Source: Ricordea florida (taxonomy: Eukaryota; Cnidaria; Anthozoa; Corallimorpharia; Ricordeidae). From it: a stretch of DNA of 64,000 nucleotides. The position numbers were made by a program, and so were the translations under genes. The notes beneath the pieces were generated by a model. It was given only the letters and a program-made list of their open reading frames with translations. It had not been told where the DNA came from and did no database searches. Each line of letters begins with the position of its first letter. Position 1 is the stretch's first letter. Location of the stretch: positions 301,001-365,000 of the forward strand of contig OX453273.1 in NCBI GenBank assembly GCA_949710005.1, read 5' to 3'. Shown here in pieces: positions 15,501-52,797 of this stretch.

Positions 15501-18500
15501 AATTTTGAATACAGGTTATTCCTAATAAGAACAACGATTTTAATGGCTCAAGTTACTCAGTGAGTTTCACGCATTTTCTATCACTAATCAAAGTTGCATA
15601 TTCTGACTAGGTTTGTGACCCTAGGAATGAATAGATGAGTTGATGGGAACTGACGATTAAAATAGAATAGGAAAGCAGAACAAAGTTGTGGCTGCTACAC
15701 CGTTGCACGATTACTTACTTGGAGACTTCCTTTGTTGCAATACTGAGACAAGATACAGACGTTGTTCGGTTCCACACAGGCACCAACAAATGTATTTATG
15801 TTCTGGTGGTTGATGTCTTTCATCTAAAGTGGAGTAAAGAGTGAATTGTATCAGCAAGATGTTAGATATTTAAGCGAAAGGCATTATTTTTGTCCTCAAG
15901 CATCTGAGGTGAATCCTAATTCCTCAAATTTTATTGGCTAATCAGGGACGCGTGACGGGTCCAGCGTTTTACGATACGGCCCACGGGCTGAATTTTTTCC
16001 CTGCTGTAGCAATTTCCTATCTTTTTTCTTACTTTAAAAAGAAGGCATCTAAAAAAATAAGTTATTTATCGGGCTAGGTCGGTCCGTATATGGGAAAAAG
16101 CTGTGCTCTTGGTCTTGAGTACGGCCCTCGGGCACAGTTTTTTCCCATACCGACCTTCCGCCCGGTAAATAACGTATATCAATGTTAGATATTTGCTGAT
16201 ATTTGTCATTGCGTCTACACATAACAAAACTACAGGTTATATTTTTTGAGTTCAGTAGATGTGAGTTTTATCGGTAAGAGTATAGCAGCCTGGCTTCTGC
16301 TAGTGTCCCTCAAGTCCTCCCCCTCCCATCCATCAGAGACTTATGTTGAACTTGAACAGAGACCCATAAGACTTGAAACGTGTAACTCAAGTTCACAGTT
16401 TGTCCAGATTCAATATTTCCCAAGTACTGTATTTCGAAACTGCTTCACGGTCTCAGTTTTTGTGCTTGATGGAACAGTCTTGCTTGCGTGGCGCATTGTG
16501 AGCAACATACACTTGGAACTTGCTCTTGTCCGCCGCCATGTATTGAGCGGCAGAGGCGGGATCACGTTTCCCGGTATGTAAGTCATGCTACTAAAGCCAA
16601 TTGATTGGCTCATTTGGCTCCATTTTCTAAACATGGTGTTTGGCAGATTGAATATGGACAAGATGTGTTTAAATACATTCAAAGGCAGTCACATGTTTCA
16701 AGTATTACGAGTTTCTGAATTGAAAGGTCTGGTGCTTTACCAATGGATCTTTACCTCTTTCAATTCCAGCAATACTTCACGAGTCAATGTAATATTTGAC
16801 TTCTGAATCTTCTTCACTGCCACCAGGTTGCCCTGTTATTAAAAATATCGATAAGGTAACAAAAAGCTATGTCTTACATGAATAATCTAGAACGATTTAT
16901 GTTTCAAACATAACGATGCAAATGAAGTATTTACCTCCATCAGGAGCCCATTACTAGTAATAAGTTCCTGCCTCAATTTACAATGAATGAAACCGTGTCT
17001 TTTACGAAACAATGAAAAATAGAATCATTAAAAACCAGTCGGCCAAACTTGATCTCGATGAAATGCTGCTAAAAAGTGCATCAAAACATTGGGTGCTACT
17101 TACAGTTTTGCGCAAAGACACAGTTAATACACACTTTATTCAAAACATGAATGTTGGTGAAAACTGCTTTTTGTAGGACAAGAAAAGTCTGATTGACCAT
17201 TTTTTCTGTTAGAAAGTCAAAGGGGCCTTAATTTTGAGAAAGGGTTAACTCAGACCGGATGCCTTGTTAGGTTCCCTAAAGCCTGTTAATTGGAGATAAC
17301 GAGGTTCTCTAACTTGTCAAACTTGGGAGCCCGATGGACCACTGTAAACTGCAGATACGATGCCTCATTTAAAGGAGAAGTAGGTCGAAAATTGCACATT
17401 GTTTTCTTTAAGCCAACGGAAAGGTCATACATAGATAAATTAATTTTCAAAACTTCAGCCTTCAAAGTGCTTCCAAACCGTGTGAAATTCCTGTCTAAAC
17501 TCGCACTAAAATCAACACAGAACGCCGCCATCTTGTAACTTAGCAGCCTAGAGATGTATGCGTGACGTCAAAGAGCTTTCACCGTGATTGCCGATAAAAA
17601 TGGCGACTGGGGACTAATGGCGACTATTGCTTGGAGCCAAAACGTGCTCCAGATAAGAACCAGGCGTCTGATCACGACAACGATGAGTCTGAAAGACTCA
17701 GTAATTCCAACTGGTGTACTTACGGATGTTATGAGCTAAAGAGAGTATCTGCTGTCTCGAAGAGCAGGAATCGGAAAACAAGTTTACGGACGGTATTCCC
17801 TTCACGACCGAAGTGTCTCAGTGTCCGACAGTCGGCTGAGGTTATTTGTTATTGTCACGCCAGTCGCCCGAAGATCGTCAAAGTGTTTTAAACCGCAGTC
17901 ATTAAGGCCTAAAGAGTAAAGAAGGACGAAGTAACGTTTTGTTTTCACGACTTAGTGTAGACTTGTTGAAAGGCGTATTTACAAGAGCATTACTGGATCA
18001 CAACTCGCTCTCGAGACCCACTTCTACTTCGTATTTATTCCAACTTGTTTAATTTGTTTAATGTGACTGAATTGTGAGTGAGCCGAATTCGTAGGGACTG
18101 TGTTAAGTTCAGATAGAGAAAAGAAAATTAACCGTCGTGTGCTCACGTTCTCTTTTAAACCTTGAATTTGGTCATTTGACGTTGTTGTTTTGCAGAGAAC
18201 GGCAAAGAAATGTACGAAAATGCATGATGCACGTGCAGATTTGCTAATTAAACCTATTGTTTTATGACGTTCTCGTTACTTCTTTGACCACAGCTGCATT
18301 TTGTTTAATTCCTCGCGAAGCGAGGCCGAAGGCCGAGCGTAGCGAGGTTACTAATCGTGTCGGTTCCGGTCAGACCACGTGGCTCGCAAGCCCGAGTAAA
18401 TCGAGCCGAGAGTTTTTATATATGTATATATATATATTTATATATATGTTTATATATATCTATATTTTAAAGGTGTCCGTTCGCAGGCCAGGTTACCTGG

Positions 18501-21500
18501 CAATAGTAACGCACTTGAGAACGCTGAATTTCCGCCATTATTCGGTGATGCCTTTTTGAAAGTAATGTAAATTTTGTGGAAACCGATTTCACTCGTCCTG
18601 GAAGTACATCCCAGCAAGGTGATCTCCAAGATATTCAAGAAATATTAGCACGAGATCGTCGCCGAGTAAGTTCGGATACCGTGAAAATCAACACGAGGAA
18701 AGCACGACTCAAAGCAGGGATAGAGAAACGACAGCAGGGAGAATAACAACAGAAATCGCAGCCAAGACAACAACTGCTCGCTCCAGAAAAAGGCAAACGA
18801 AACAGCAGGGAAAAGGACCAGGAATTCAATCAAGTTAGTTTTGAATTTGAATGTGTTATTGATAGAAATACAGGACATGAGTGAACGATTACATAACGAA
18901 ATATATTGGTGTACTACATTTAGCAAAACGACTTAGAAGGGACACCGAGTAAGAACGACTTCAACGATTGGAGATGTCTCTGGAAAATAATTCTATTAGT
19001 CTAAAACCGGAATCGGAAGACGACCAACAGATTACAAGAGAATGTAAATAGGTATTTTTCATAATAAAACGATAGCGTTTCCAGTTTGAAGTAATTTCCA
19101 ACACAGAGAGTTGCAGTTGTTATAGCAATCATTTATAACGATGTGATCTGATATCATTGCAACAGTGAAAATATTGTAAATTTTCTTGATCTAGCAGTTA
19201 TGTTAAACATTTTCAACAGAATGTATACCCTGTGTCACTATAAAGTACGTGTTCTGCAATATTATCAGTGATCAATGTGATCATTTTAAAATAAAGCAAA
19301 TGTGATTACTGAATTCTGAGTAGTATTTCTCTTTGCTATATATATATATATATATGTATGTATTCTCTGATTGAAAGGTTTCAATAATATTGTGTAGAGA
19401 CAAGTTTCATAGCCTTTTCACAATGGGTCAGTTTTACCTTAGAGTGCAATGACCCCCCCCCCCTGATAATATTGCTATCTAGAACCCCTGCCCTTTTTTC
19501 ACAAATGAAATGTTAATTCAAGCCTTAATTTGCAAAGTTAGACATAACATATTAACTTTGTTACTTTCTGCCGTTTACTTTATTTTTATGTCAAATATCA
19601 ATATTTCATAACAACCACAACATGCAATTAACCTTTTACATTGGAAAAACTTTATAAAGAAGAAAATAAATTTTGTAATGCCAAAATGTTTATGATCTTT
19701 CTCATATATTCATTGCAAGTGTGCTGTATGTAGTAACAAGTGTTTCAAGTTTCCTAAATGCCCTATGCTTTCAATAATGATTTTCCACACAAACTTTCTA
19801 GACAAATGACTGCACTAGATTCTAAGCCTTTAAGAAGAAATGGTATTGTTTGGAGCTGTTTTGATTACTACCACCTCTGATGGAAAGCCTATTAAGAAGA
19901 TTTTTGTATTGCTTTTAGTAGTAGAGTAACAATAACTTTACCAAGATTAAGACATGAATCCCACCCCATAAAAATATATTATGTTTAACATAAAAAATAT
20001 AACAATAATAATATCAATACCAGTAATAATAATAGTAATGATAATAATAATGATAATAATATAATGATAGTTCTTCTCGTTACTATATGTCATTGGTTAC
20101 AGTTCAATACCTCTGGCTGCCATGACTTTTTCGATGAAATACCGTCCTTATATTAAATCTTTCTGTGGTGTTTCGGGCCCAAGTAGAATAAAAGATTCCG
20201 GCACTTAAACAACGATAACCCTTTTTATTTCTCTGTCTCCGAGCACATGCTCCCGTTCTGCATCCCATAATGCACTAGGGATCATGTGACTCACACGTCA
20301 CAATAGAAACACTACATCTCCCCCTAAGTTATTACAAATGTTAGTACTAGAGAAAAACTAAATGAAAGGTATTACGAACCTAATTGAAGTCTTTAAAACA
20401 AACATACAGTCTCTCTCTTAATGTCTCTTGCACAATCTAAAACTAAGTGCATACGTAGTCTTTCAAATAGGCGGGTGGTTGTCTAGAACGCGCAGGTCGC
20501 AAAACAACTGAATCGCCTGGCAAAGGGTTGGGTGGAGTCTCTTGCACCTCTGCTGCTGGCTGGCTTGCGACTGTCATTGGATGCGCTTGTTTCACCTGGT
20601 CTGGTTCTTGGGGTTGTTGTGTTGGCTGTACTTGGTCTTCCCTTTCAGTGGTTTCAGGTGCAACAAATTTCTTCATGTGGGCTATGTTTCGCATTTTATT
20701 GTTTCCATTTGTATCTTCAAGTATGACAGCATTTCCATCCTTGTGAATAACTTTGTATGGCTCAGGTTCATAATTGGGTGAAAGTTTGTTCTCTCGAGCC
20801 TGTTTCAGTAGGACTTGATCACCCTCTTCAATGTCGCTGAATTTGGCAGCGCGTGTTCTGTCTGCATACTCCTTCTGTCTAAGTTTAGCACGAGCATCCC
20901 TGTCTTTTAAGAGCAGTTGCCATTGTGCTTCAGTGGCTCGATCCTTGGGGATTTGAACTTTTGGAAGTTTGTCACGCAGCTTCCTCCCCATCAGTAGTTC
21001 TGCAGGTGATATCCCGGTAACAGTGTGAGGGGTAACTCTGTACTGGAAGAGAAAGTCTGCAAGTGCTTTTCGCCAATCTTTACCCTCTAGACGTGCGATT
21101 CTCACAATTTTCAGTAAGGTCTCATTGCAACGCTCTACTTCGCCATTGCTTTGGGGCCAAAAGGGCACGCCCTTTTTGTGCTCGATTGCTAGATATTCTA
21201 GGAATCCCTCAAATTCCTTGGATGCAAATGGAGGTCCGTTGTCACTACGGACAGTCTCGGGTAGACCATGTGTTCTAAAAATAGCCTCCATGGACTTGAT
21301 TACATGTTTGGCATCTGTTGTCTTGAGAAGGACAGCTTCGATCCAGCGAGAATAGTAGTCTACAACTACCAGGAGGTGATCTCCACCTGTAATCTCTAGA
21401 AGATCAACCGAGATTTCTTGCCATGGGGAGTCTGGTAGTCTGGTTGATCTCACTGGCTCTGGTTTGGATCGGGGTCCGACAAGCTGGCAGGGGTGACATG

Positions 21501-24500
21501 TTCGTACTACTTGCTCTACTTGCTTGTCCATTCGCGGCCACCATACTTTTTCTCGTAACCTGGCTTTAGTTCGGACCATACCTTGGTGTCCTTCGTGAGC
21601 CAGCATTATGGTGCGCTTTTGAAGGTTCTGTGGGATGATGATGCGGCTTCCTCTCATCACCACCTGCCCTATCACCCACAGTTCATCTTTAACTGCTTTG
21701 TAAATTGTGCCTTGTAACTAGCTCCAATCATCTGTCATTACAGCCTGACGTAGCTTCTTTAGTGTTGGGTCTTTTTCAGAAGCGATTTCAACTTCCTTTG
21801 GTACCAACGCAGCTGGTACAGCCTCACTTACTACGCTGTACGCAAACTCTTCTGTAGCTTGAGTTTCGTGATCATGGGTAGAACCAACCGGTAGGCGGCT
21901 GAGGACATCTGCAGCATTGTCCTTGCCCCGGATATGTGTCAGCTTGTATTGGAACTGCTGTAAATAGAGAAGCCATCTTTCTATTCTTGCAGATGGGGGC
22001 TTGGACTTTGCTCCGAGTACGATGAGAAGAGGCTTGTGATCAGTGCAGATTTCAAAGCTAATGCCATAGAGGTACAAGTAGAATTTTTCACAAGCCCACC
22101 TTACAGCTAGGGCTTCTCTTTCAAATTGGGAGTACCTCATTTCAACCTTACTCAGCTTCCTGCTGGCATAATATATTGGCCTGTAGCTTCCATCTTCTTG
22201 CTCCTGTTCCAGAATCGCCCCAACTCCCACGGGTGAAGCGTCAGTTGTCAGACGAGTTTCTGCGCCCTGTCTGAAATATGCCATCACTGGTGCATGAGTC
22301 AACCGGTCTTTTATCTCTTGGACTGACTTTGCTTCCTTTACTCCCCACTTCCACTTTCCATGTTTCGTAGTGAGGTCCCACAATGGACTCGATATTGTTG
22401 CAAAGTTAGGAATGAACTTTGAACAGAACTGCACGGAGCCAAGAAAACTTCTTACTTCTGATGGGTTTTGGGGTGCTGGTGCCTCAACAATAGCTTTCAC
22501 ACGTTCACTAGACACTTTCAGCCCTTCCCCAGAGAGCACATCACCCATGTAGATCATGCTGCTGACACCAATTTCACATTTTTCATAGTTAAGTGTAAGC
22601 CCACTTTCGTTAAGCTTGCGCATGACCCTCTGTAAGTTTTTATCATGCTCTTCATCATTTGTGCCAACAACTCGCAGGTCATCATGGAGGTTGTATGCCC
22701 CTGGGCAGTCTTGGATGATCTGCCACACAATTTGCTGGAATTTTTCCGTGGCCATGTTTACACCGAAAAGCAGGCGCTTGTATCTGTAAAGGCCATTAGG
22801 GGCAGCAAAGGTTGTAATGTCCCTTGAGTCTGGGTGTAACTCAATTTGATGGAAAGCCATATTTAAATCTAATTTAGAGAAAACTTTGGCATTTGAGACT
22901 TCTTGGAGTGTTTCTTCTACGGTGGGGACTGGGTGTTTCTCCCGCACAATGGCCTGGTTCGCTTGTCTCATATCCAGACAGATTCTAATGTCCCCGTTAG
23001 GTTTCTCGACCACTACTAAGGGGTTGACCCAGCTGGTAGGTCCCTCTACTTTCTCAATAACATCAAGCTTCAGTAACTCCTCCAATTTCTCTGTGACTTT
23101 TTTTCGTCTACTAAAAGGAATTCTGCGTGGGGGTTGAGCAACTGGCTGCACCTTTTCGTCAATGTGTAACTTGAGTTGGTATCCTTTGAGCTTCCCCAGG
23201 CCTTGGAAGACTTTGGGAAACTTTGCCCTTAGGGAGGCCTTTCTATCTGCTTGTTTTGGATTGTTACTAGCACCATCAGATTCAACATCACAGCTGTTAA
23301 CAGGGATACCAACCCTTAAAACACCAAGCAATTCAGATGCATCGCGGCCTAATAGCGTGGCAGCTTTACTATGCGTAACATAAAACTCAACGCTCAGGGA
23401 CTTTTGGGTTTGCGGTACACGTACATCAAGATTACATTTTCCTTTGATTTGGAGTGGCTCTTCAGATGCATAAGCAAAAACTCTTTTGTTGCACTCCAAC
23501 AATTTAACATTACCCCCCGTTACAAGGTTAAATACTTCCTCGGACATCAAATTACAACTAGCACCAGAGTCTATAATGACATTAATAGTCTTATCTGCAA
23601 TCTCCAGCTTTAGAGTGTTCCTGTCATCTGTCTCCCCAGTGTAAAACACGTAGAAATCATCCTTTCTTGCAGAGTTCCCAGCAGTCTCGTCCTCAGTTAC
23701 TTGGCGTACATCACGTTGGCACTGTGAACTTCCTCCACGACTTTGTTTTCTGCCAGAGTTTCCACGACCGCGACTCGAACTCCGACTAGAATCTCGCCCT
23801 TTACTCTGTTTGGAGTGACAGCACACTTCGAAATGACCCACGTTGCCACATTTCCCGCATTTGTGGTCACGTGAACGAAAGCATTCCCTCGCGAAGTGTC
23901 CCGCTTTATCGCACCGCCAACATTTTCCCCCTTTTTTGACGCTTGGAGATATGTTATTTACTTGGCCATTACGGTTAAGAACGAGTGCTTCTTTGTCATG
24001 GTATTGGCTAACGATTTCCATTAGTTTGCTCAATGTTAATGTTTCTTCGCGATACAACTTGGCCTTGAGGTTTTTGTCTTGAATGAAAGAAATCGCACGA
24101 TCTCTCACCTGGTTATCCCTTTCACCTTCGTATTCACAATGTTCGGCTAATTTCTGCAAGCGTGTGATGAAATTGTTAATGGTTTCTCCAGCGGTTGGTT
24201 GAGCTGCGAGAAACGCCTGTCTTGCCATCGGCGCGTTTTTTCTCGGTTTGAAATGTTCGGATAGGCTGTCCATAGCTTTCTTGTAATCCTTCGCTTCGCC
24301 TCGTTTGTCGGCAGGAATTGAGTTATTAAAAACGTCTCTGACTTGGGGCCCGGCGAGGTGAAGTAGAAGCGCCCTCTTCTGTGTTGGGTCGCTGATTCCC
24401 GAGGCAGTCACGTACAATTCGAATTCGTCTTTCCAAGTTAACCATCGTTGTGCGAGTGTAGCTGGCTCGCCCACAGCGTCGAACGCTTGTAAACCTGGCA

Positions 24501-27500
24501 GTCCGCTCAAGGATACGGCCATCTGTGCGAGTTTTCCACCGTTTAAACTCGTTAACCACTTTTTATCCGCTTTTCGTCTTTATCCTCGTCGCCAAATGTG
24601 GTGTTTCGGGCCCAAGTAGAATAAAAGATTCCGGCACTTAAACAACGATAACCCTTTTTATTTCTCTGTCTCCGAGCACATGCTCCCGTTCTCCATCCCA
24701 TAATGCACTAGGGATCATGTGACTCACACGTCACAATAGAAACACTACACTTTCTTCTGCAGTTTTTATAATAGAAATTTTCATATATTCAAAATAATGT
24801 ACTACTCTATGGTTGGATATGGATATTTTGCCTGTTTCTGTAACAGCACAATTAAACTTTCATGTGGTATATACTTTTGACTGATTGATGTTGATTTCAC
24901 ATTATTTTTTTACAGGAGTACGTAGTGCAGCAATCTTTTTGAACATATTAAGATTTCAATAACTCTTTCTTACATGTATTGTTTTTATGATATGACCTAA
25001 AAATAGCACAACCACATACTATACAGTGGGCACTCACTATTACCAAACCTTTATTCAAAGCTTTTGTAGAATCCAATTGTTTTACCCCCAATTTGTTGAT
25101 ATGGCATCTCTTTTGAGGGAAGAGGAATTTTTCTATCTACCACTGGGGGTACCATTGCAACTGGAAAGAGTACACACATTAAAACATGCACTATTCATAA
25201 TGCTCTCAATTGTGGTTACCCGGGAATGAAATAATGACTGCAGTAGACAATAAAATATCTAATCAGAAGATTCTTCTTACAATGAATCTCATGCAATTAT
25301 AACCAAAAAAACATAAACAAAAATTAATTGGAGCGTTCAGCTCATCCTCTGTGTAAGAACATATTGTGTTCAAAAGTGATGTACAACAAAGAAGACAAAG
25401 CAGTAGAGACTAAGAAAATAAAACTAAAGAAAAAAAACACAGGTTTTTACACCGTGGTAAACACAAGCATTCATATCAACTCTTCAAGATTTCACCTGCA
25501 AAAGATTTACAATCATTTTCAATTTGTGTTAAGTGAATATTATTGTGATACTTCATCGACTCTGTATTCCCTGTCAAGATAATAAATAATTTTACTTCTA
25601 TTCCCTCTGGTGCAATCTCAGTGGCAGTGAAAGAGCTAAATGAAGGTCAATTTTTAAGCACTGTGTTGAGCGGTATACTGATCTTGTAATTTGCACCAGG
25701 TGTCACTAATTGTGTACCAAACACAGCATAAGAAATAAAATAATGGGGATTACGCTAATATAAAAAATAAAATATATAATATAAAAAAAAATAAAGAATA
25801 AAATATGAAAGCATTGTGACTTCTTCAAAAACTAGCTTCGCGAGGTTTTTGCGGGAGTCGTATTTCTAGTATTTAATATTTCGTGTTCAATATGGAATCC
25901 TGGCATTTGCCAAATTTAAGCGTCCAGATTGCACCAGATTGCATCTCAGAGTACTTAAATTTTCAAAATTTTCCGGGGGGGCATGCCCCCGGACCCCCCT
26001 AGTAAGTCGCGACTTCGTCGCTTCAAATGGGCGCTCTCACGCCCATATTGCCAATATTCTGAATTATGCCACGCCAGGGCTTACAAACAAAAAAAGGCTA
26101 GGAACGCCCCTGAAAGCATTCTCAAATATTGCGAAGGAATTCACAAACGTTTTTAACTATAGTTAAGTGTCAAGGTCGGTTAACTTGCTATGATTTTTGT
26201 CTAAACTTTCGTCTGCCATTAGTACGGTCTTTCTACCTACAAAGTCATGGAGTATATTCAACAAAAAACACAAATTATCAATGTACTATATTCTGTTCCT
26301 GATGAAATTAACCATTCTATTTGCGTAAATGTATTTAAAAGATTTGTACACGCTACTGGGAAATGCAGGACACAACTCTTGTCATTTTCGTTTTAAAACG
26401 AACACCTCGGTAAAATAAATGTTTACTCCAAGCAGGGTGCAAAGAAAATTAATTTTACAGATTGCCCTTCGGGCAAGCTGTAACCAACATCTACCAGCCC
26501 GAAAAACATTTTTCACGAGAATGAAAAAATAATTATTAACTAGAAATACGACTCCCGCAAAAACCTCGCGAAGCTAGTTTTTGAAGAAGTCACAATGCTT
26601 TCATATTTTATTCTTTATTTCTTTTTATATTTTATATTTATTTTTTATATCAGCGTACTCCCCATTATTTTATTTCTTATGCTGTGTTTGGTACACAATT
26701 AGTGACACCTGGTGCAAATTACAAGATCAGTATACCGCTCAACACAGTGCTTAAAAATTGACCTTCATTTAGCTCTTTCACTGCCACTGAGATTGCCCCA
26801 GAGGGAATAGAAGTAAAATTATTTATTATCTTGACAGGGAATACAGAGTCGATGAAGTATCACAATAATATTCACTTAACACAAATTGAAAATGATTGAA
26901 AATCTTTTGCAAGTGAAATCTTGAAGAGTTGATATGAATGCTTGTGTTTACCACGGTGTAAAAACCTGTGTTTTTTTTCTTTAGTTTTATTGTCTTAGTC
27001 TCTACTGCTTTGTCTTCTTTGTTGTACATCACTTTTGAACACAATATGTTCTTACACAGAGGATGAGTTGAATGCTCCAATTATTTTTTGTTTATGTTTT
27101 TTGGTTATAATTGCATGAGATTCATTGTAAGAAGAATCTTCTGATTAGATATTTTATTGTCTACAGCAGTCATTATTTCATTCCCGGGTAACCACAATTG
27201 GAGAGCATTATGAATAGTGCATGTTTTAATTTGTGTACTCTTTTCAGTTGCAATGGTACCCACAGTGGTAGATAGAAAAATTCCTCTTCCCTCAAAAGAG
27301 ATGCCATATCAACAGAAGTGTGAGATACAATGTCACTACATAAAAAAAATTGGGGGTAAAACAATTGGATTCTACAAAAGCTTTGAATAAAGAAAATGGG
27401 TAAATCTAACGAGTTGATTAAGTAAGTTATACCACCGTAAGGTAAAAAGGAGGTGCTGACGTTTCGAGCGTTAGCCCTTCGTCGGAGCGAAACTATCCCC

Positions 27501-30500
27501 ACAATACTTGCTTTGAATAAAGGTTTGGTAATAGTGAGTGCCAACTGTATAATATGTGGTTGTGCTATTTTTAGGTCATATCATAAAAACAATACATGTA
27601 AGAAAGAGTTATTGAAATCTTAATATGTTCAAAAAGATTGCTGCACTACGTACTCCTGTAAGAAAATAATGTGAAATCAACATCAATCAGTCAAAAGTAT
27701 ATACCACATGAAAGTTTAATTGTGCTGTTACAGAAACAGGCAAAATATCCATACCCAACCATAGAATAGTATATTATTTTGAATATATGAAAATTTCTAT
27801 TATAAAAACTGCAGATAAAAAAAAGAATTAATAATTATAAGGACGGTATTTCATCGAAAAAGTCATGGCAGCCAGAGGTATTGAACTGTAACCAATGACA
27901 TATAGTAACGAGAAGAACTATCATTATATTATTATCATTATTATTATCATTACTATTATTATTACTGGTATTGATATTATTATTACTGTTATGTTTTTTA
28001 TGTTAAACATAATATATTTTTATGGGGTGGGATTCATGTCCTAATCTTGGTAAAGGTATTGTTACTCTGCTACTAAAAGCAATACAAAAATCTTCTTAAT
28101 AGGCTTTCCATCAGAGGAGGCAGTAATCAAAACAGCTCCAAACAATACCATTTCTTCTTAAAGGCTTAGAATCTAGTGCAGTCATTTGTCTATAAAGTTT
28201 GTGTGGAAAATCATTATTGAAAGCATAGGGCATTTAGGAAACTTGAAACACTTGTAACTACATACAGCACACTTGCAATGAATATATGAGAGAGATCATA
28301 AACATTTTGGCATTACAAAATTTATTTTCTTCTTTATAAAGTTTTTCCAATGTAAAAGGTTAATTGCATGTTGTGGTTGTTATGAAATATTGATATTTGA
28401 CATCATAAAAATAAAGTAAACAGCAGAAAGTAACAAAGTTAATATGTTATGTCTAACTTTGCAAATTAAGGCTTGAATTAACATTTCATTTGTGAAAAAA
28501 GGGCAGTGGTTCTAGATAGCAATATTATCAGGGGAGAGGGGGTCATTGCACTCCTAGGTAAAACTGACCCATTGTGAAAAGGCTATGAAACTTGTTGTCT
28601 CTACGGTTTATTATTGAAACCTTTCAATCAGAGAATACATACATATATATATATATAGCAAAGAGAAATACTACTCAGAATTCAGTAATCACATTTGCTT
28701 TATTTTGAAATGATCGCATTGATCACTGATAATATTGCAGAACCAGTACTTTATAGTGACACAGGGTATATATTCTGTTGAAAATGTTTAACATAATTGC
28801 TACATCAAGAAAATTTACAATATTTTCACTGTTGCAATGATATCAGATCACATCGTTATAAATGATTGCTATAACAACTGCAACTCTCTGTGTTGGGAAT
28901 TACTTCAAACTGGAAACGCTATCGTTTTATTATGATAAAAACCTATTTACATTCTCTTATAATATGTTGGTCGTCTTCCGATTCCGTTTTTAAACTAATA
29001 GAATTATTTTCCAGAGACATCTCCAATCGTTGAAGTTGTTCTTACTCGGTGTCCCTTCTAAGTCGTTTTTCTAAATGTGGTACGCCAATATATTTTGTTA
29101 TGTAATCGTTCACTCATGTCCTGTATTTCTATCAATAACACATTCAAATTCAAAACTAACTTGATTGAATTCCTGGTCCTTTTCCCTGCTGTTTCGTTTG
29201 CCTTTTTCTGGAGCGAGCAGTTGTTGTCTTGGCTGCGATTTCTGTTGTTATTCTCCCTGCTGTCGTTTCTCTATCCCTGCTTTGAGTCGTGCTTTCTTCG
29301 TGTTCATTTTCACGGTATTCGAACTTATTCGACGACGATCTCGTGCTAATATTTCTTGAATATCTCGGAGATCACCTTGCTGGGATGTACTTCCAGGACG
29401 AGTGAAATCGGTTTCCACAAAATTTACATTACTTTCAAAAAGGCATCACCGAATAATGGCGGAAATTCAGCAGTTCTCAAGTGCGTTAGTATTGCCAGGT
29501 AACCTGGCCTGCGAACGGACACCTTTAAAATACAGATATATATATATATATACATATATAAAAACTCTCGGCTCGATTTACTCGGGCTTGCGAGCCACGT
29601 GGTCTGACCGGAACCGACACGATTAGTAACCTCGCTACGCTCGGCCTTCGGCCTCGCTTCGCGAGGAATTATTCTTTTCTTAATTACATTGTAAGTTTAA
29701 AAAATTACTGCCTTCATTTATTCACTACAATCAGCTGTAGTTACTTAACAAAAGAAATAAATAACCGTAAAAGTGTGAACTATAAGTAGACCTGGTCCAA
29801 CGCAACACGTGAATGACTAACATACATTTGAGACATTTTACAATTTAGAAGAACATTTTTTACGAAAACAACGGCGTTGAAACCAAAGTTCTCAATCGAC
29901 ACACTAAATGACAACGTCGACAACGCGAAAAGCTGCCAGTGAAAGCGCTACATTCTGCAATTTGCCGCCAAGAGAAAATTCCCGCGGGAGTATTTCTTGG
30001 CCGTCGACAGGGGAGATGTTTATATGATTAAAGGACATAAAAATTTGAAATCTTTCATCAGTTTGCTTCTCATTCAAAAGTAGTGCATTCAGAAGATCAT
30101 TTTTCTGAAGAAGGTTTGTTTAGAAGTCGGTTTTCCAAGTCAAGTGTCAAGTTTAAGGGAAAGTGGAAAGTGCGAGTGCTGAGTCACGCATCAGTGAGCA
30201 AATATTAGGGACTTTAAGCAGCGAGAACGGCAACGGCGACGGCGACGGGAGAGGCCTCCGGGAAAACCCAAATCTCATAATGCGCATGTCTGCCGGAAAA
30301 TATCTTGCCGTTGCCGTCACGTCGGAACGTGAATAAAGGCAATCTCCGGTTGTGTGAAAACGTGAGTACTAAAATCCTATTTTCTTTGCTATTTTGTCGT
30401 ACGTAATGACATTTAAGCAATGAGTGACTACTAAAAAGTCTAAATATACTTTATAATCATTTTTTATCAGAAAAGTTTGTCCCCTTGGTAAAGGGGAAAG

Positions 30501-32766
30501 CGCAACTGAAGACCAAAGCAAAGCAAATTAAGCTCTTTGTTTGAAAATGAAATTACCCGTAGAGAATTTTTCTCGTTTGTTTGGCCTAGCTACATAACTG
30601 AAGTTATATGAAGTAAGCAGTCATTAATTGATTAAAATGATTTTACATAAAAGCCAGAACCTTTCTGTCGCTGTCTAGACCAAGTTCCAAGGTGATAACA
30701 GCGTCGCTTGGCCCATTTTATTTTCAGTTAATGTGCAATCGTAGGAATTCAATACACTGAAGCGTCTTTGAAAAATTTCTGATCTAACTTTATAATGTGT
30801 GCTACGAATACATGTTACATTTGACAACGGACCTGATCTAAAAATATAACTTCGATAATTCTCACGTGAGAACTCGTGTTGTTGTTGTTTGTAAACTTTA
30901 TATTTCGCTGTTATTTATTTCGTGTATGTGTAGATGTGATTGAAATAAGGACCGAAAGAATTCTCTGTTCTCTAAAATGGAATTCGGAAACACATTCATC
31001 ATCCTCAAGAACATCGAAATCAAAATACTTGAATGAATTGTATGGTAAATCCAAATTTTCCGAACTGTTTGGGTCGTACAGCAAGAGAATATCGTCATCG
31101 CTAATCAAAAGCTGGTTTCTTGCCGATTTAAGCGAAAAACAAGACAGACAAACTTAACTGGTTAACTGGCGTGCCATGACTGCCGTCCCAGTTTCGCGGT
31201 AGCGTGCTTAAGTGCTTTAAAGCTCGCCCCACGACCGCGTTCTCTCCCCAGTCTTTTCGCTGTTCCGACGTCGCCGTTCCCGTTCCGGTTCTCGTTGCTT
31301 AAAGTCCCTATTATGCAGACAAAACTTATGCAAATTTGTGGTCCATAGCACGGAGTCTTCCCACTTCTCGGCTTTCTTCGCTACAATTTTGTCTGTTTTC
31401 CACAGCACGGAGTCTTTCCGCTTCTCGGCTTTCTTCGCTACAATTTTGTCTGTTTTCCACAGCACGGAGTCTTTCCGCTTCTCGGCTTTCTTCGCTAAAA
31501 TTTTGTCTGTTTTCCACAGCACGAAGTCTTTCCGCTTCTCGGCATTCTTCGCTACAATTTTGTCTGTTTTCCACAGCACGGAATCTTTCCGCTTCTCGGC
31601 GTTCTTCGTTAACATTTTGTCTATTTTCTCGAGCCCGGACTCTTTCTGCTTGTCGACGTTCTTCGCAATAATTTCGTCTCCTTTCTCTTTCCCGAGCGCG
31701 CCTTCTTTGGCGATTTAATTCGCTCATTCTTCCTCAGTTAATTCTTGCTCTCTTTCCCGTTGCTCTTCACCTGAACCCTGTGTTCTGCAAATTATATTTT
31801 CCCTGCTATTGTTTGTTGACATGGCAATAGAAATTGTTTCGTTTATCCTTTAGTAAAACTTTAACAGTGTAGAGTAGTAATATTGTGTCTCAAAAAGACA
31901 ATGAACTGAAAATTTCTTTTTCAGTCGTCAACGCAATTTCCCGCCAAAAATATGCGGGTTACCAGAACAGCTTCCAAATAAATCACGTCACCTCGATCAG
32001 TTGACACATGAGCCCACAATATGGTCATGTGATGCTGGTCAGTGGCTATCCCGTTTTGACAGCTGTCAATTGACCATATTGTGAATGTCCAATATAAAAG
32101 ATGTGGATTTGCCAAGACACGCCTGAGATACCCCTCCCTTCCTTTTGATAGTCTCCCCTACCCTACCCGTACAATCTGTAGACGCGTACGTACGTACGGA
32201 CGTACGCTCGGTCAGTCACGTGACAACCAAAGGAAAAGAGGTTGACCGTATTCCATGAGTATGGGGCTCTGCTCCACGCGCGCTTCGCCCCGCTATAAAA
32301 TATAGACAAGATCATCTAATATGATGATTTCTCGATAGTCGGACAAGGAGTATTTTAAAGTTATGCGTCCAACAGCTCCAGTAAAGATAGCCTACGTGTA
32401 GCCGCACCCTCCCCCGGAAGGAAAAAACATGAAGAGGGAACCCTCCTCCCGTTTTTTCTTTCGGGGGGAGGGTGCGGCTACACGAAGGCTACAGTAAAGA
32501 GTGAAAATTTTCTAAGTCCCCTGTAGATTTCAACTTTGCTATAGCCGGGCTCTACTTGATAATTTACATGAAGATTTGTGGCGGTCATCTTATACTGTCC
32601 GTAAACTTGTTTTCCGATTCCTGCTCTTCGAGACAGCAGATACACTCTCTTGCAGTCTCTCTTTAGCTCATAACATCCGTAAGTACACGAGTTGGAATTA
32701 CTGAGTCTTTCGTTGTCGTTTTCAGACGCCTGGTTCTTATCTGGAGCACGTTTTGGCCCCGGGGAA

Positions 32767-35800: not shown

Positions 35801-38800
35801 CCTGTTAAAAAAGGATGAGACAAAAGAAACTTAAGAGCTTCCTTTTACTCTCTTTAATGTACATTGGTTATGACAGCACGCAACGTTGGTCAAAAGGTAT
35901 AAATTACCCTTAACGTAAGGTATTGTTGTGAGAGATCTAGAGACCACCCACTATGGAGCTTAAGTAAAAGAGCAAGGACTGCAACAGTAATGATATCAAA
36001 AAACAACAAAACAATAGACAACACAGTGAACAATTTGGAATGAGACAAAAAGTGTGTTATTAGATGAAAAAATAGCTGCCATTAAGGTCCACTTACCGAT
36101 AAATTGCCTACCAAACATTGCCTTGGAAATATTCTTTCCTTCAGAAATGGAAATGTTCTGTTGCAAGGTGTCATTCAGGGTATACGCATAGAGAAGGATG
36201 GCATCATGCAGGTAAGCTGCATAGCTATTAGTCTGAAAGTAAAAAAAGCTACCGTTTATTTTCACATTTTTAAAGTAAGAAATATAACACTAGTGATAGA
36301 ATTGAGTTACTAAATGAAAACACACATGATTCCCTGCAACTCTGAGTTTCGTGCTTACGCACTCATCAGGCAGATTTAATGAAGAAAACCCTATCAGCTA
36401 GTATATATATATATATATATTTACAATAAGTAGAACAATAGGAGAAGCTGCGCGTTAATTACAATAGGTGAGGAAGGCGGATCTATTAGAACAAAGGAAT
36501 GTGTGAAGTAAACTGTCTAAACTAAAAACTAAAAACTAAAAGCGTAGGGGCGTAAAACAATAGTTCAGTATTGTATAGGATGAGCGTCAATTGTTCTTTA
36601 AGTAAAACTTGTTTTCATGTCGGCACTTGGAAATAATTTCATATCGTTTGTTCAGGAGATTGTAATTGCTGTGATCTGAACTTATTTCCAAGTGCCGACA
36701 TGAAAACAAGTTTTACTTAAAGAACAATTGACGCTCATCCTATACAATACTGAACTATTGTTTTACGCCCCTACGCTTTTAGTTTTTAGTTTTTAGTTTA
36801 GACAGTTTACTTCACACATTCCTTTGTTCTAATAGATCCGCCTTCCTCACCTATTGTAATTAACGCGCAGCTTCTCCTATTGTTCTACTTATTGTAAATA
36901 TATATATATATATACTAGCTGATAGGGTTTTCTTCATTAAATCTGCCTGAGAGTGCGTAAGCACGAAACTCAGAGTTGCAGGGAATCATGTGTGTTTTCA
37001 TTTAGTAACCCAATTCTATATACCGCTCTACACAAATGTGTATTGAGCACTATTCAGCAGTGTTTTCTACAACTTCTCACGATTAACACTAGTGATATTA
37101 ATAATGCCAAGCATTAATACCCTGCTAACAAGTTTGCAACTGAAATAGGCAAAAAGGAATGTGACACAACAAACCCCACCTCGAGAAAGTGGTTTCAGAG
37201 CCACCTTATTGACGAGCGAGTCGAAATAGTGTCAAGACTAAAAAAGATCTTTTTAATCTTAGGAAATTACACCGTTATAAGTTAACACTTATTCACCGGG
37301 CGGGAGTTCCATTTGGGAATAACCTGTGCCCGAGGCCGAAGGCCGAGGGTCATGCTCAAAACCAAGGGTATCGTTTTTCCCTTTACAGACTGATCTAGCC
37401 CAGTTAATATCTCATTTATTTATTTTTTTTTTTTGGATGTCTTCTTTTTAAAGTTGGAAAAGAGTAAAGAGTAAGTAAGGACATATGACATAACTTCCAG
37501 AGTGCTTACAAAGCCAAAGAAATAATGTGAGCATGATTTTCAACGGTTGACTTTTATTCTGACTTTTACCGGTATTTTCCTTAATTAACAGTTATAGCTT
37601 ATTTTTGTAGCAATCGCTACAGTGGGGAAAAAATCTGGCAAGTGGCTGTATCGTAAAAAGCTGGACATGTCACGAGCGTGTGATTAGCCAATCACATTCC
37701 AGGACCTAGGATTCCAGCCTGCTCAGATGCTTGAGAAAAAATATGTCATATTGTTGGAATGATAACATTAATTCTTAACAAATAATTATCAATGATCTTT
37801 TGTTACTGCCGTTATCTTTCAATGTTAAGTCAAGTCCACCACTATAAATCCTTTTTGAGCCACTTTAGAGAGACACATGGGATATTTCATGGCCGCGTGG
37901 ATATACCAAATTTCTCTCGGAGTGGTGGAAAATATTTCACTCATTCGCTGAGCCCACCCTTTAAAGATTTTTTTGTCAACATGAGAAGAAAAATTTCGCA
38001 TCTCCGAGGGACAATGTAATTTTTTTTTACTTCTTAAAATTTAATGGTGTACTTAGTACTGAGTGAAAATTAACTTAAAGTCTCCTCCACCAGTGATATC
38101 ACACGTGCAGATACATGTGATATCAATTTTACCGATTTGCTACCACTTGGCATACCACTCAAATTAATATTATAAAAGAATTTAGTAGAATGATATGTAT
38201 AATTTATTTTCAATTTGGTCAAGGGGAGAATAATGTGAGAATAATGTAAAACATCTTGAAAAATTGTACTTACTTCATTTGGGAAATTAATGGAGTAATT
38301 CATCTCAGGCATTCTGGTGTATACAGCAGTTGTAAAATCTTCATACTCCTTGGAATCAGGAATATACTGACTAACATTTATAATTCCTTCATAAGCAGCA
38401 CAAGCCTCATCATCCCTACCATCCTGAGCATCGTCAGGGGCTTTGCAGGAATTGAGGAGTATTTCTAGGGTGATTACCACAATCTCTCCATTCAGCAAGC
38501 CCAGATCTTTCATAGCCAACATAAATTGTCTCAAGGAGTTTCCATAGCAAAGAACCATGAAGACTACAAAAAGAAAAAACAATGCCCTGTTTTATCATTC
38601 CCATAGTAAGATCATGGTTCTATCTCCATTTTAATTTGAAGATAACAGAAACCAGCTAATTCGAAACTACATCGCACTACGGTTAGCTCTTCTAAAAACT
38701 ATCAATGGAATATTTTAAAAATGAAAACTATTCCATTTCTAGATTTCTTAGAAAGTCGAGGAATTCATCTTTGATTCAGCTTTATGTCGTGAGGAATAAG

Positions 38801-49400: not shown

Positions 49401-49468
49401 ATAAATGTTTCTTCACTCACAACAGATCAACAGATCAAAGGATACAGGCCACTTTTTAATGCAAAATC

Positions 49469-50262
49469 TAGAGGTGACTATTGAGGTCATTTTGACTATT
49501 GCAATAGTATTGCGATAGTTGAAACACTATTGCGATAGTATTGCGATAGTAGGGATACTATTGCGATACTATTGCGATAGTACTGGTCAGAATTTTTTAA
49601 TCACTCAACAGTAGTAGCTAAAGTGTATGTTATATTTAACACCACCAATCTCTCCAATTAAGTTGAGAAATAAATTGACTTTGTAGACTCTGCTAAAGTC
49701 GAATCAGTCGATGGCTGCTGCAAATACGTTGCGTGTTTCCGTCGCACGTGGTCAGTTAGATTTGTATTGTTTCCGCAATACTTGAGTACCATTCTGCACA
49801 ACTTGCATCCAACTCTGGTTTTATCAAGGGGCTTGTCAGGCTCCTTTATAAACCCGACATGTTCCCATATGTTTGCCTTTCCCTTTCTGTTAGGAACGAT
49901 TTCAAAACACTCCGGTTGGCTCTTATCCACCATCTTTGTAGAACAGCAACAATCATTACTATGTACCCCCTTTATGAAATAGGAGAAGACAAACATGGCG
50001 GAGAAGTTTAAAGTTTATATATTTCGTGCTCCTTTTGTTGTGACAGCGCAAACAAGCAGCGAACATGGATTCTGACGTGTTTCTCTGTTAAAGAAGAAGG
50101 CTACAGTGGACTATTTTAATTTATTCAAAAACTATCGAAACTATCGATAGTTGTCGAAACTATCGCAATTGTTATCGATAGTTGGATTTGCAATCGATGC
50201 GTCGCTATCGGGACACTCGCTATCGCGATACATCGATATTTCGATGTATCGTTACACTCCTA
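49469..50262 (-). mobile_element. Non-autonomous hAT element, copy A
   Basis: The 794-bp element starts TAGAGGTGAC and ends GTTACACTCCTA, hAT-like imperfect terminal repeats, with many ACTATTGCGATAGT-type subterminal motifs. It holds a 112-codon frame (49996-49658) with a BED zinc finger. Flanks are GCAAAATC (49461-49468) and CATCAACT (50263-50270), which do not match each other; see copy B. Confidence 0.85.
49658..49996 (-). CDS. BED-type zinc-finger ORF, 112 aa, hAT exon relic
   Basis: The frame reads ANIWEHVGFIKEPDKPLDK then VGCKLCRMVLKYCGNNTNLT and DHVRRKHATYLQ: a CxxC...HxxxxH BED finger, the DNA-binding part of hAT transposases. The catalytic RNase H-like part is missing, so by itself it cannot transpose. 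The copy at 52171-52509 differs by one visible residue (KMVDKSQ against KMADKSQ). Confidence 0.8.
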   Translation of the reverse strand: MFVFSYFIKGVHSNDCCCSTKMVDKSQPECFEIVPNRKGKANIWEHVGFIKEPDKPLDKTRVGCKLCRMVLKYCGNNTNLTDHVRRKHATYLQQPSTDSTLAESTKSIYFST

Positions 50263-50682
50263 CATCAACTAAGAGATAAAATGTTCCAATCATTCCTGTC
50301 TCCGCTTGGGCCAAAAAGTGCATAGTCGACCGGTTCTCTTCTTTAGAAAGCTCATAGTCGTGCGCAGTTATTTACGAAACAAACCAGCAATAAAACGGGG
50401 AGTAAAGAAACACGTCTGACAGCCGTGCTAATTGAAACTAACTATTATCATTATTATCAAGGTGAATTAATCAACATGACAGGGGCGTGGGACAAAGAAA
50501 AATTCTGAGTCCCCGACAGAAAATTCACCATCTTTATAAAAATATCATCATTATTGTCATATTATTATTTTTTATTATCAAATGATTATTGTTATTAGTA
50601 TTATTATCATTATCATTATTTTCTTTATCATTAAGACAATTTGGTCTATTTAAACAATGGAGTGTTTCTGTCGAGGAACTGT

Positions 50683-51375
50683 CGGCTGATAGTTGCCCCG
50701 CGGAAATTTGCTTTTTTTAAAACTAATATTACCCTGTACCAGATGTTTTGCTTGGAAATTTTTTCTTCGCGAAAGAGAGAGCAAGCCGCGAAGCCGCGAA
50801 GTCGCGAGACCGCAACAATTTTCTTCGTGAAAGAGAGAGAGCAAGCCGCGAAGCGGCGACAACGAGGAAGAAAGAGGGAAAAACCTATGGTTACCTTGGC
50901 CTCGAATCTCACTTTCATGCAGACGACAGGGCTAGTTTCTGACCCTCGGGCGTTGATTGGTTGACACAAACGCAAAGCAATTTGACTGGGTAGTTTGATT
51001 GTAACTACATCCGCTTAAAGAAATAGCGGCTGATAAGCACGTGTTTGCTAAATTGCCATTAGTCTCCTTTCTATTAGCAATTTGACGCGTTTGACAGCTG
51101 TCGTCTGCATGAAAGTGAGATTCGAGGCCAAGGTAACCAGAGGGTTTTCTCTCTCTCCTCGTTGCATCGCGTCTCGTTGGAGCAGCTTCGCGGCTTGCTC
51201 CCTCTTTCGCGAAGAAAAATTTCGAGAAAAACCTCTAGAACCAGGAAAGTAAACAAATATTTGCAAATATGCTAAGCTTCTAAGGCAAAAAGCTATAAGC
51301 TTCTAAGGCAAATATGCTAGTTCTAAGAACATCAAATTTCCAAGGGGCAACTATCAGACCGATAGTTCAGAGACA
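50683..51375. mobile_element. Nested TIR element inside the inverted spacer
   Basis: The ends GAACTGTCGGCTGATAGTTG and CAACTATCAGACCGATAGTTC are imperfect inverted copies. Further in, CGCGAAAGAGAGAGCAAGCC and CCTTGGCCTCGAATCTCAC/GTGAGATTCGAGGCCAAGG form long inverted arms (50754-50925 with 51095-51235). Confidence 0.65.
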
Positions 51376-51904
51376 TTAAAACTGTACTGTCTTTTTTGTT
51401 CACCACTAAATTTCTTCCGCACGCCAGTTCAAAAAGAATTGAAACCCACTAAATGCAGATCAAATCAAATATTCTGATTCATGAGTACCTTGTTTTTTTG
51501 TGGAGTACAGCCTCATTAACAAGGATAGATACATCTTCTTTGCGGACCTCGGAAGGGCACTATGAGCTGACCAATAAGAATCGGAGAAAATTTGTAGGTG
51601 AACTATAAACGAAAATAGATATCCTCCTCACGGAGTCAATTTATAAGGGATGGACCATTAGAAAAGTGATGGGGAGTGGGGGGGAGGAAATTCATGCAAG
51701 AGAAAATGCCAAGAAAAAATAGTGCAAATAAGGTAAAGAAAAAAATTCATGCAGAAGAAAGGTCCAATTGTGACTTTTATTTGATATATAAAATTTGCCA
51801 GTTACATTAAATAGTGCACTAAAGTGTTTTCATCACACTGCATGAAATAATGACAAATATAAGGCGACATAAATTAATTCATACTACAATAACCAAGATT
51901 TTGC

Positions 51905-52687
51905 TAGGAGTGTAACGATACATCGAAATATCGATGTATCGCGATAGCGAGTGTCCCGATAGCGACGCATCGATTGCAAATCCAACTATCGATAACAATT
52001 GCGATAGTTTCGACAACTATCGATAGTTTCGATAGTTTTTGAATAAATTAAAATAGTCCACTGTAGCCTTCTTCTTTAACAGAGAAACACGTCAGAATCC
52101 ATGTTCGCTGCTTGTTTGCGCTGTCACAACAAAAGGAGCACGAAATATATAAACTTTAAACTTCTCCGCCATGTTTGTCTTCTCCTATTTCATAAAGGGG
52201 GTACATAGTAATGATTGTTGCTGTTCTACAAAGATGGCGGATAAGAGCCAACCGGAGTGTTTTGAAATCGTTCCTAACAGAAAGGGAAAGGCAAACATAT
52301 GGGAACATGTCGGGTTTATAAAGGAGCCTGACAAGCCCCTTGATAAAACCAGAGTTGGATGCAAGTTGTGCAGAATGGTACTCAAGTATTGCGGAAACAA
52401 TACAAATCTAACTGACCACGTGCGACGGAAACACGCAACGTATTTGCAGCAGCCATCGACTGATTCGACTTTAGCAGAGTCTACAAAGTCAATTTATTTC
52501 TCAACTTAATTGGAGAGATTGGTGGTGTTAAATATAACATACACTTTAGCTACTACTGTTGAGTGATTAAAAAATTCTGACCAGTACTATCGCAATAGTA
52601 TCGCAATAGTATCCCTACTATCGCAATACTATCGCAATAGTGTTTCAACTATTGCAATAGTCAAAATGACCTCAATAGTCACCTCTA
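51905..52687 (+). mobile_element. Non-autonomous hAT element, copy B (inverted)
   Basis: Inverted, nearly identical partner of copy A (783 bp). Flanks are GATTTTGC (51897-51904) and AGTTGATG (52688-52695), the reverse complements of copy A's outer and inner flanks respectively. Confidence 0.85.
52171..52509 (+). CDS. BED-type zinc-finger ORF, 112 aa, second copy
   Basis: Same protein as 49658-49996 apart from one visible residue. Conservation of the frame in both copies reflects recent common origin, not proven function. Confidence 0.8.
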   Translation: MFVFSYFIKGVHSNDCCCSTKMADKSQPECFEIVPNRKGKANIWEHVGFIKEPDKPLDKTRVGCKLCRMVLKYCGNNTNLTDHVRRKHATYLQQPSTDSTLAESTKSIYFST

Positions 52688-52797
52688 AGTTGATGGAAGC
52701 TAGATTATTATTTCCACGGCATTTGCATATGGGCAAATCAGCCGCCTGGAATGAATTATACAGCCTCGACCACAATACGCCTTGCCAAGCAAGACAC

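What the first reader, a model, noticed from the sequence alone, without database searches (positions are those of the whole stretch)
49461..52695. Two inverted hAT copies with swapped 8-bp target duplications record an inversion
Copy A (49469-50262) is flanked by GCAAAATC and CATCAACT; copy B (51905-52687, inverted) by GATTTTGC and AGTTGATG. Neither copy has matching flanks, yet GATTTTGC is the reverse complement of GCAAAATC and AGTTGATG that of CATCAACT. The pattern is explained if each copy once had its own 8-bp TSD and the 1.64-kb spacer was later flipped by recombination between the two copies. This follows directly from the bases plus the known 8-bp TSD of hAT elements.
Basis: partly seen in the sequence, partly recalled or inferred. 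Interest (0 to 1): 0.75.

Follow-up and report, generated by a model that had tools for sequence, protein, structure and literature searches.

The report
Small inversion between paired hAT transposons
A 1.64-kb stretch of an unnamed eukaryotic genome appears to have been flipped between two near-identical small jumping genes, as told by their swapped 8-base insertion scars and by an older repeat that the flip tore apart; it is a clean example of a known process.

Summary
Copy A (49469-50262) and inverted copy B (51905-52687) differ by 1 SNP and 11 bp, and their 8-bp flanks are swapped. Controls: 16 of 16 other complete copies have their own duplication (15 at 8/8, one 7/8). Independent witness: undoing the flip rejoins the left flank to the spacer's far end as one interspersed repeat. 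Of 28 relatives fetched, 23 carry both halves; in all 23 the nearest pair of halves has the pre-flip order. Merging duplicated loci leaves 21 of 24 groups. So the present order is derived, or misassembled; no reads or other alleles were available. The element is hAT-like and non-autonomous, with a BED zinc-finger ORF. I favour recombination (about 0.6) over hybrid insertion (0.25); these weights are judgement. Swapped duplications at an inversion are known from Galileo in Drosophila. New member of a known kind, modest interest.

The parts
49461..49468 (+). outer left 8-mer GCAAAATC (site 1 duplication, copy 1)
   Evidence: the same 8-mer stands at this place in 18 of 20 host-repeat relatives checked
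49469..50262 (+). copy A, hAT-like non-autonomous element, 794 bp (TAGAGGTG...CACTCCTA)
49658..49996 (-). 112-aa ORF with BED zinc finger in copy A
   Evidence: Pfam zf-BED E 1.7e-8
50263..50270 (+). inner 8-mer CATCAACT (site 2 duplication carried in by the flip)
50263..51904 (-). flipped spacer, 1,642 bp; one full-length match in the assembly, itself
51897..51904 (-). inner 8-mer GATTTTGC (site 1 duplication, copy 2, flipped)
51905..52687 (-). copy B, 783 bp, lacks one 11-bp tandem unit
52171..52509 (+). 112-aa ORF with BED zinc finger in copy B
   Evidence: Pfam zf-BED E 1.7e-8
52688..52695 (+). outer right 8-mer AGTTGATG (site 2 duplication)
   Evidence: no relative across the rejoined site 2 among the 40 candidates scored
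49204..49468 (+). left half of an older host repeat (AGTACGGACCATT...) split by the flip
51647..51904 (-). right half of the same host repeat, now on the opposite strand to the left half

Best explanation
Two copies of a young, low-copy, hAT-like non-autonomous element came to sit 1.64 kb apart in opposite orientation: one inside an older repeat (site GCAAAATC), one in DNA without found relatives (site AGTTGATG). Each then had its own 8-bp duplication. Homologous (non-allelic) recombination between the two 0.8-kb inverted copies flipped the spacer together with the inner copy of each duplication, so each element now shows two different 8-mers. Shown here: the elements, the swapped 8-mers, the canonical duplications of the other complete copies, and the older order at site 1. 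Inferred: that the flip is in the organism and not in the assembly, and that the route was recombination. My split, by judgement: the flip is real, about 0.9; recombination as the route, about 0.6.
For: Exact swapped 8-mers. 16 of 16 other complete copies have own duplications. A search with the element's 3' end gives 34 places at up to 3 mismatches (3 in the control); 18 of them, at 0-1 mismatch, are the places of the 18 complete copies. Undone order at site 1: 28 relatives were fetched (117 matches; 40 of 1,912 candidates scored); 23 hold both halves, and in all 23 the nearest pair of halves is on one strand in the undone order; 5 hold only the left half. Merging loci that share more than 2 kb outside the repeat leaves 21 of 24 groups. 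L033 and L040 (duplicates of one locus) align over 11-530 of 536 in one gapped stretch. The inverted arms (755 nt, one mismatch, 1,642 nt apart) are a good recombination substrate. Precedent: exchanged duplications by ectopic recombination in PMC2775673 (passages; section 10 part 1 of 2). PMC8225341 section 15 says NAHR carries the inner duplications along and leaves usually non-identical ones.
Against: No chimeric structure can be shown: A differs from the majority of the 8-copy core subfamily by 1 SNP and B by none, and they share no variant special to them. Two independent insertions this close are unlikely at random: 0.0007 inverted pairs expected within 2,436 bp for 18 copies in 537.8 Mb, so local transposition must be assumed. 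No relative was found with which to test site 2. In L033 and L040 the stretch just past the join aligns poorly; only L049, L058 and L036 among the fetched loci hold the piece next to the join, and L049 and L036 (and, by its spacing, L058) have extra DNA before it. L044 has, besides its nearest pair, a farther pair of halves on opposite strands that belongs to a neighbouring element. No second allele or read data.
Confidence: 0.6

Rival explanations
1. Hybrid-element insertion (sister-chromatid or homologue alternative transposition). Only one element existed. After replication, the left end of one sister copy and the right end of the other were taken together by transposase and inserted 1.64 kb away on the same arm. 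That creates in one step the second inverted copy, the flipped segment and the swapped 8-mers.
For: PMC2775673 section 10 says the outcome is strikingly similar to ectopic recombination except that the copies are identical instead of chimeric. A and B are near-identical, 1 SNP and 1 gap. It explains the proximity: 0.0007 random inverted pairs expected, and the next closest two complete copies on one contig are about 1.2 Mb apart (C4). Ac/Ds, a hAT system, does alternative transposition (PMC8225341 section 15; PMC3744419 passages).
Against: The near-identity is not special: B and L013, unlinked, also differ by 1 SNP (with 2 gaps), and A+B with at most 1 SNP has Poisson probability 0.07 given the other six core copies. 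A and B share no private variant. A local hop followed by recombination explains proximity and identity as well. PMC7642927 (passage): its authors know of no inversion from wild populations made this way.
Confidence: 0.25
2. Misassembly: the assembler (or scaffolder) flipped the 1.64-kb segment between two 0.8-kb inverted repeats; the organism has two ordinary insertions.
For: Sequence alone cannot separate this from a real flip: the undone order is also the canonical one. No reads are held here.
Against: 537.8 Mb in 48 contigs, the contigs whose length was shown being 27-48 Mb, and no N in the window suggest a long-read assembly, in which single reads would span the 3.2-kb unit; the sequencing technology itself is not known to me.
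Confidence: 0.09
3. Chance resemblance, or an inverted duplication or composite transposon instead of an inversion.
For: None found.
Against: Chance of the 16-base pattern about 5e-10. The printed flanks beyond the 8-mers do not match, so no inverted duplication. A composite unit would have equal outer 8-mers, and here they are GCAAAATC and AGTTGATG. The order of the host-repeat halves calls for a flip.
Confidence: 0.01

Closest known systems
Galileo inversions of Drosophila buzzatii (2z3; PMC2775673)
   Same: Two inverted DNA-transposon copies at the two ends of an inversion with exchanged target duplications; other copies with own duplications.
   Different: P-superfamily element with 7-bp duplications, a polymorphic chromosomal inversion, and chimeric copies; here 8 bp, 1.64 kb, and no visible chimerism.
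Alternative transposition of Ac/Ds (hAT) in maize (PMC8225341, PMC3744419) and hybrid element insertion of P in Drosophila
   Same: Ends of two element copies taken together cause inversions with an element at each end; the hybrid insertion variant gives the same swapped 8-mers.
   Different: Reversed-ends transposition needs direct copies and makes a new duplication; here the copies are inverted, and the pattern fits recombination or hybrid insertion.
hAT-derived MITEs at Atlantic cod inversion breakpoints (PMC12368964)
   Same: hAT-derived non-autonomous elements proposed to flip DNA by ectopic recombination in a natural animal genome (passages).
   Different: Four large inversions with tandemly inserted elements; the terms 'target site', 'hybrid element' and 'alternative transposition' have 0 occurrences in its main text.

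Membership tests
hAT superfamily, non-autonomous element | 8-bp target site duplication | tested here: met
   15 of 16 other complete copies 8/8, one 7/8
hAT superfamily, non-autonomous element | short terminal inverted repeats of hAT type | tested here: inconclusive
   Ends TAGAGGTG / TAGGAGTG are similar but not identical; likeness to hAT ends is recalled, not looked up
hAT superfamily, non-autonomous element | relation to a hAT transposase | tested here: inconclusive
   ORF has zf-BED (E 1.7e-8), a domain common in hAT transposases (recalled). Among 22 matches of the ORF in the genome none lies in an unbroken longer frame; two lie in longer broken frames (198 and 224 aa) that I did not study further
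inversion by recombination between transposon copies (Galileo type) | exchanged target duplications | tested here: met
inversion by recombination between transposon copies (Galileo type) | derived order relative to relatives | tested here: met
   site 1 by 23 of 23 two-half relatives, 21 groups; site 2 had no relative across the join
inversion by recombination between transposon copies (Galileo type) | chimeric copies | tested here: inconclusive
   only 1 SNP and 1 indel between A and B, no parental markers
hybrid element insertion | identical copies, exchanged duplications | tested here: inconclusive
   near-identical, but so are unlinked copies
hybrid element insertion | single-insertion ancestor at one site | not testable with these tools
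   no other individuals held

The most novel reading that the evidence does not exclude
The flip was made in one step by hybrid-element (sister-chromatid) transposition of a hAT MITE. It would then be a natural inversion of a kind of which the authors of PMC7642927 (2020) said they knew none from wild populations.
Probability: 0.25. Interest if true: 0.5.

Novelty: new member of a known kind. Interest (0 to 1): 0.27.

Why it matters
Swapped target duplications are a base-exact mark of transposon-mediated inversion that can be sought in one genome without a relative to compare. Here the mark is backed by a second, independent witness (a split host repeat). The same mark can come from recombination or from hybrid insertion, so counts of swapped against canonical close pairs across young families could show how often the second route acts in nature.

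Tried and rejected
Chance: rejected (about 5e-10; next best flank match 6/8). Inverted duplication and composite transposon: rejected from the flanks. Reversed-ends transposition: rejected, because it needs direct copies and makes a new duplication. Second allele in the assembly: the spacer's only full-length match is itself (40 of 2,725 candidates scored), and neither rejoined site has an unfilled copy among the scored candidates (40 of 1,912, 40 of 99). Autonomous partner: none found with the BED ORF (two longer broken frames not studied). Selection on the ORF: open in 17 of 18 complete copies; 15 synonymous and 42 non-synonymous differences from copy B, summed over copies with shared changes counted more than once, on 57.7 and 212.3 sites, so no clear sign of selection. 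Whether the internal deletion at site 1 is shared: only our locus has the exact junction (47 matches at up to 3 mismatches, 42 in the control); of three other matches looked at, one has a 20-base match to the host repeat and two none.

The similarity argument for hybrid insertion (A/B the closest pair) was dropped when the matrix showed that B and L013 also differ by 1 SNP; notes 1 and 2 state the stronger form and are superseded. Note 4 says 22 of 27; one search showed more duplicated loci, so the count is 21 of 24 groups. The odds did not change.

Full report
What is there. The window is part of contig C2 (301001-365000) of an unnamed 537.8-Mb genome held in 48 contigs. Copy A is 49469-50262 and copy B, inverted, is 51905-52687. 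They differ by one SNP and one 11-bp tandem unit. Flanks are GCAAAATC-A-CATCAACT and GATTTTGC-B-AGTTGATG; both crosswise reverse-complement identities are exact.

Is it a mobile element with 8-bp duplications? A search of the genome with A gave 41 matches. I fetched 20 stretches. Sixteen of these (L009-L024) are complete copies, and all sixteen have their own duplication: fifteen 8/8 and one 7/8 (L021). The other four (L025-L028) are partial matches and were dropped from the count; the remaining short matches were not looked at. An independent search with the 3' end gave 34 places (3 in the control); 18 of them have 0-1 mismatch and are the places of the 18 complete copies, A and B included. 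A and B are the only two of these without own duplications, and their 8-mers match each other; the next best match between flanks of any two copies, in element orientation, is 6/8. The element carries a 112-aa ORF with a BED zinc finger (E 1.7e-8), open in 17 of 18 complete copies and without clear sign of selection. The ORF has 22 matches in the genome, none in an unbroken longer frame; two lie in longer broken frames that I did not study. That BED fingers and ends of this type are usual in hAT elements is recalled knowledge. I call it hAT-like and non-autonomous.

Independent witness of the flip. If the spacer is turned back, the left flank (to 49468) meets the reverse complement of the spacer's right end (51896 and below). 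This 536-base joined stretch matches an interspersed repeat (117 matches; 40 of 1,912 first-look candidates scored). I examined the 28 relatives fetched (L033-L060) with internal pieces of the two halves, keeping matches of 40 bases or more: 23 hold both halves, and in all 23 the nearest pair lies on one strand in the turned-back order; 5 hold only the left half. L044 also has a farther pair on opposite strands, which belongs to a neighbouring copy. Four pairs of loci share more than 2 kb outside the repeat (L034/L035, L042/L053, L033/L040, L037/L056) and are probably duplicates; merged, 21 of 24 groups hold both halves, all in the turned-back order. The distance between the halves varies from 11 to 766 bases. 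In the window the halves stand on opposite strands. L033 and L040 align over 11-530 in one gapped stretch, at 73% and 70%, but poorly just past the join.

The repeat's ends read GGGACGGACCA...TGGTCCGTCCC. Of 15 loci inspected, 12 showed both ends, and 11 of these 12 have matching TTA or TAA next to both ends (read by eye, choosing the end that fits where several were printed; L043 does not match; L033 and L040 are duplicates, so 10 of 11). Ours has TAA on one side and TTA on the other. Such TWA duplications suggest a PIF/Harbinger-type MITE (recalled). Rejoined site 2 found no relative across the join (43 matches: two are our own locus and the others are short pieces at one end), so only site 1 is polarised.

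An odd detail. In the 20 relatives printed the 8-mer GCAAAATC stands at the insertion place in 18, followed by TTTTCGAAAATG or a near form. Among fetched loci other than our own, the piece that follows the join in our locus is found in three only, L049, L058 and L036; in L049 and L036 about 290 and 400 bases stand before it. So our copy of the repeat has an internal deletion whose edge lies one or two bases past the 8-mer. The exact junction occurs only here (47 matches at up to 3 mismatches, 42 in the control). Internal deletions are common in this repeat, judging from the varying distances; why this edge lies so close to the insertion site I cannot explain, and it may be coincidence.

How it came about. 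Recombination between two inverted copies flips the spacer with the inner duplications (PMC2775673 section 10 part 1; PMC8225341 section 15). [quoted passage not shown] I followed this through by reasoning for our case: L-s[T]s-R with a target t in R gives L-s[T]t'-flipped segment-s'[T inverted]t-R, as seen here. The data do not decide. A has one SNP and B none against the 8-copy core subfamily, and they share no variant of their own. The total of one SNP has Poisson probability 0.07 given the other six core copies, but B and L013, which are unlinked, also differ by a single SNP. Proximity is remarkable: 0.0007 inverted pairs within 2,436 bp are expected for 18 randomly placed copies, and the next closest complete copies on one contig are about 1.2 Mb apart. 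Both a local hop followed by recombination and a hybrid insertion explain it. I favour recombination because it is documented for natural inversions, while PMC7642927 (passage seen) says its authors know of no inversion from wild populations made by hybrid insertion. These weights are judgement, not computation.

Misassembly. The spacer's only full-length match is itself, and no unfilled copy of either rejoined site was among the scored candidates. Large contigs (27-48 Mb where shown) speak for long reads, but I could not see reads. If the assembler flipped the segment, all observations would be the same.

What is in print. Searches: 17 papers with at least 5 of 6 terms; 6 papers for hybrid element insertion with inversion and transposon; 28 papers with at least 4 of 5 terms, 15 listed; 1 paper for 'exchanged TSDs' with inversion; 12 papers; 14 papers, 12 listed. 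They show swapped duplications as known (Galileo) and hAT or hAT-derived elements at inversions as known (maize, PMC8225341; cod, PMC12368964, passages). Passages of PMC9674265, PMC3744419 and PMC12312487 were also seen.

Verdict. It is a new member of a known kind.

Noticed in passing
window 18306-29671: Large inverted duplication (arms 93-98% alike in pieces, centre near 26.2 kb by my arithmetic), whose left arm is interrupted by an LTR-type element at about 20164-24749 (153-nt direct repeats 99% alike; RT, RNase H and integrase domains on the minus strand).
   Followed up: partly
window 36404-36914: Near-perfect palindrome with 242-nt arms (99%) and 27 nt between them, with TA-dinucleotide tracts at its outer ends.
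   Followed up: no
window 31280-31735: Tandem repeat with 57-bp unit.
   Followed up: no
window 50646-51610: Spacer holds a composite repeat (pieces at spacer 384-468, 1035-1290, 1308-1346) with a foldback-type repeat family nested at about 50819-51245 (spacer 557-983).
   Followed up: partly
window 49461-49470 and 51895-51904: The host repeat lost an internal piece whose edge lies 1-2 bp past the 8-bp duplication; this junction was found only here at zero mismatches. Unexplained.
   Followed up: partly
G000 complete copies L009-L024 with window A and B: The BED zinc-finger ORF of the element is open in 17 of 18 complete copies, without clear sign of selection.
   Followed up: yes
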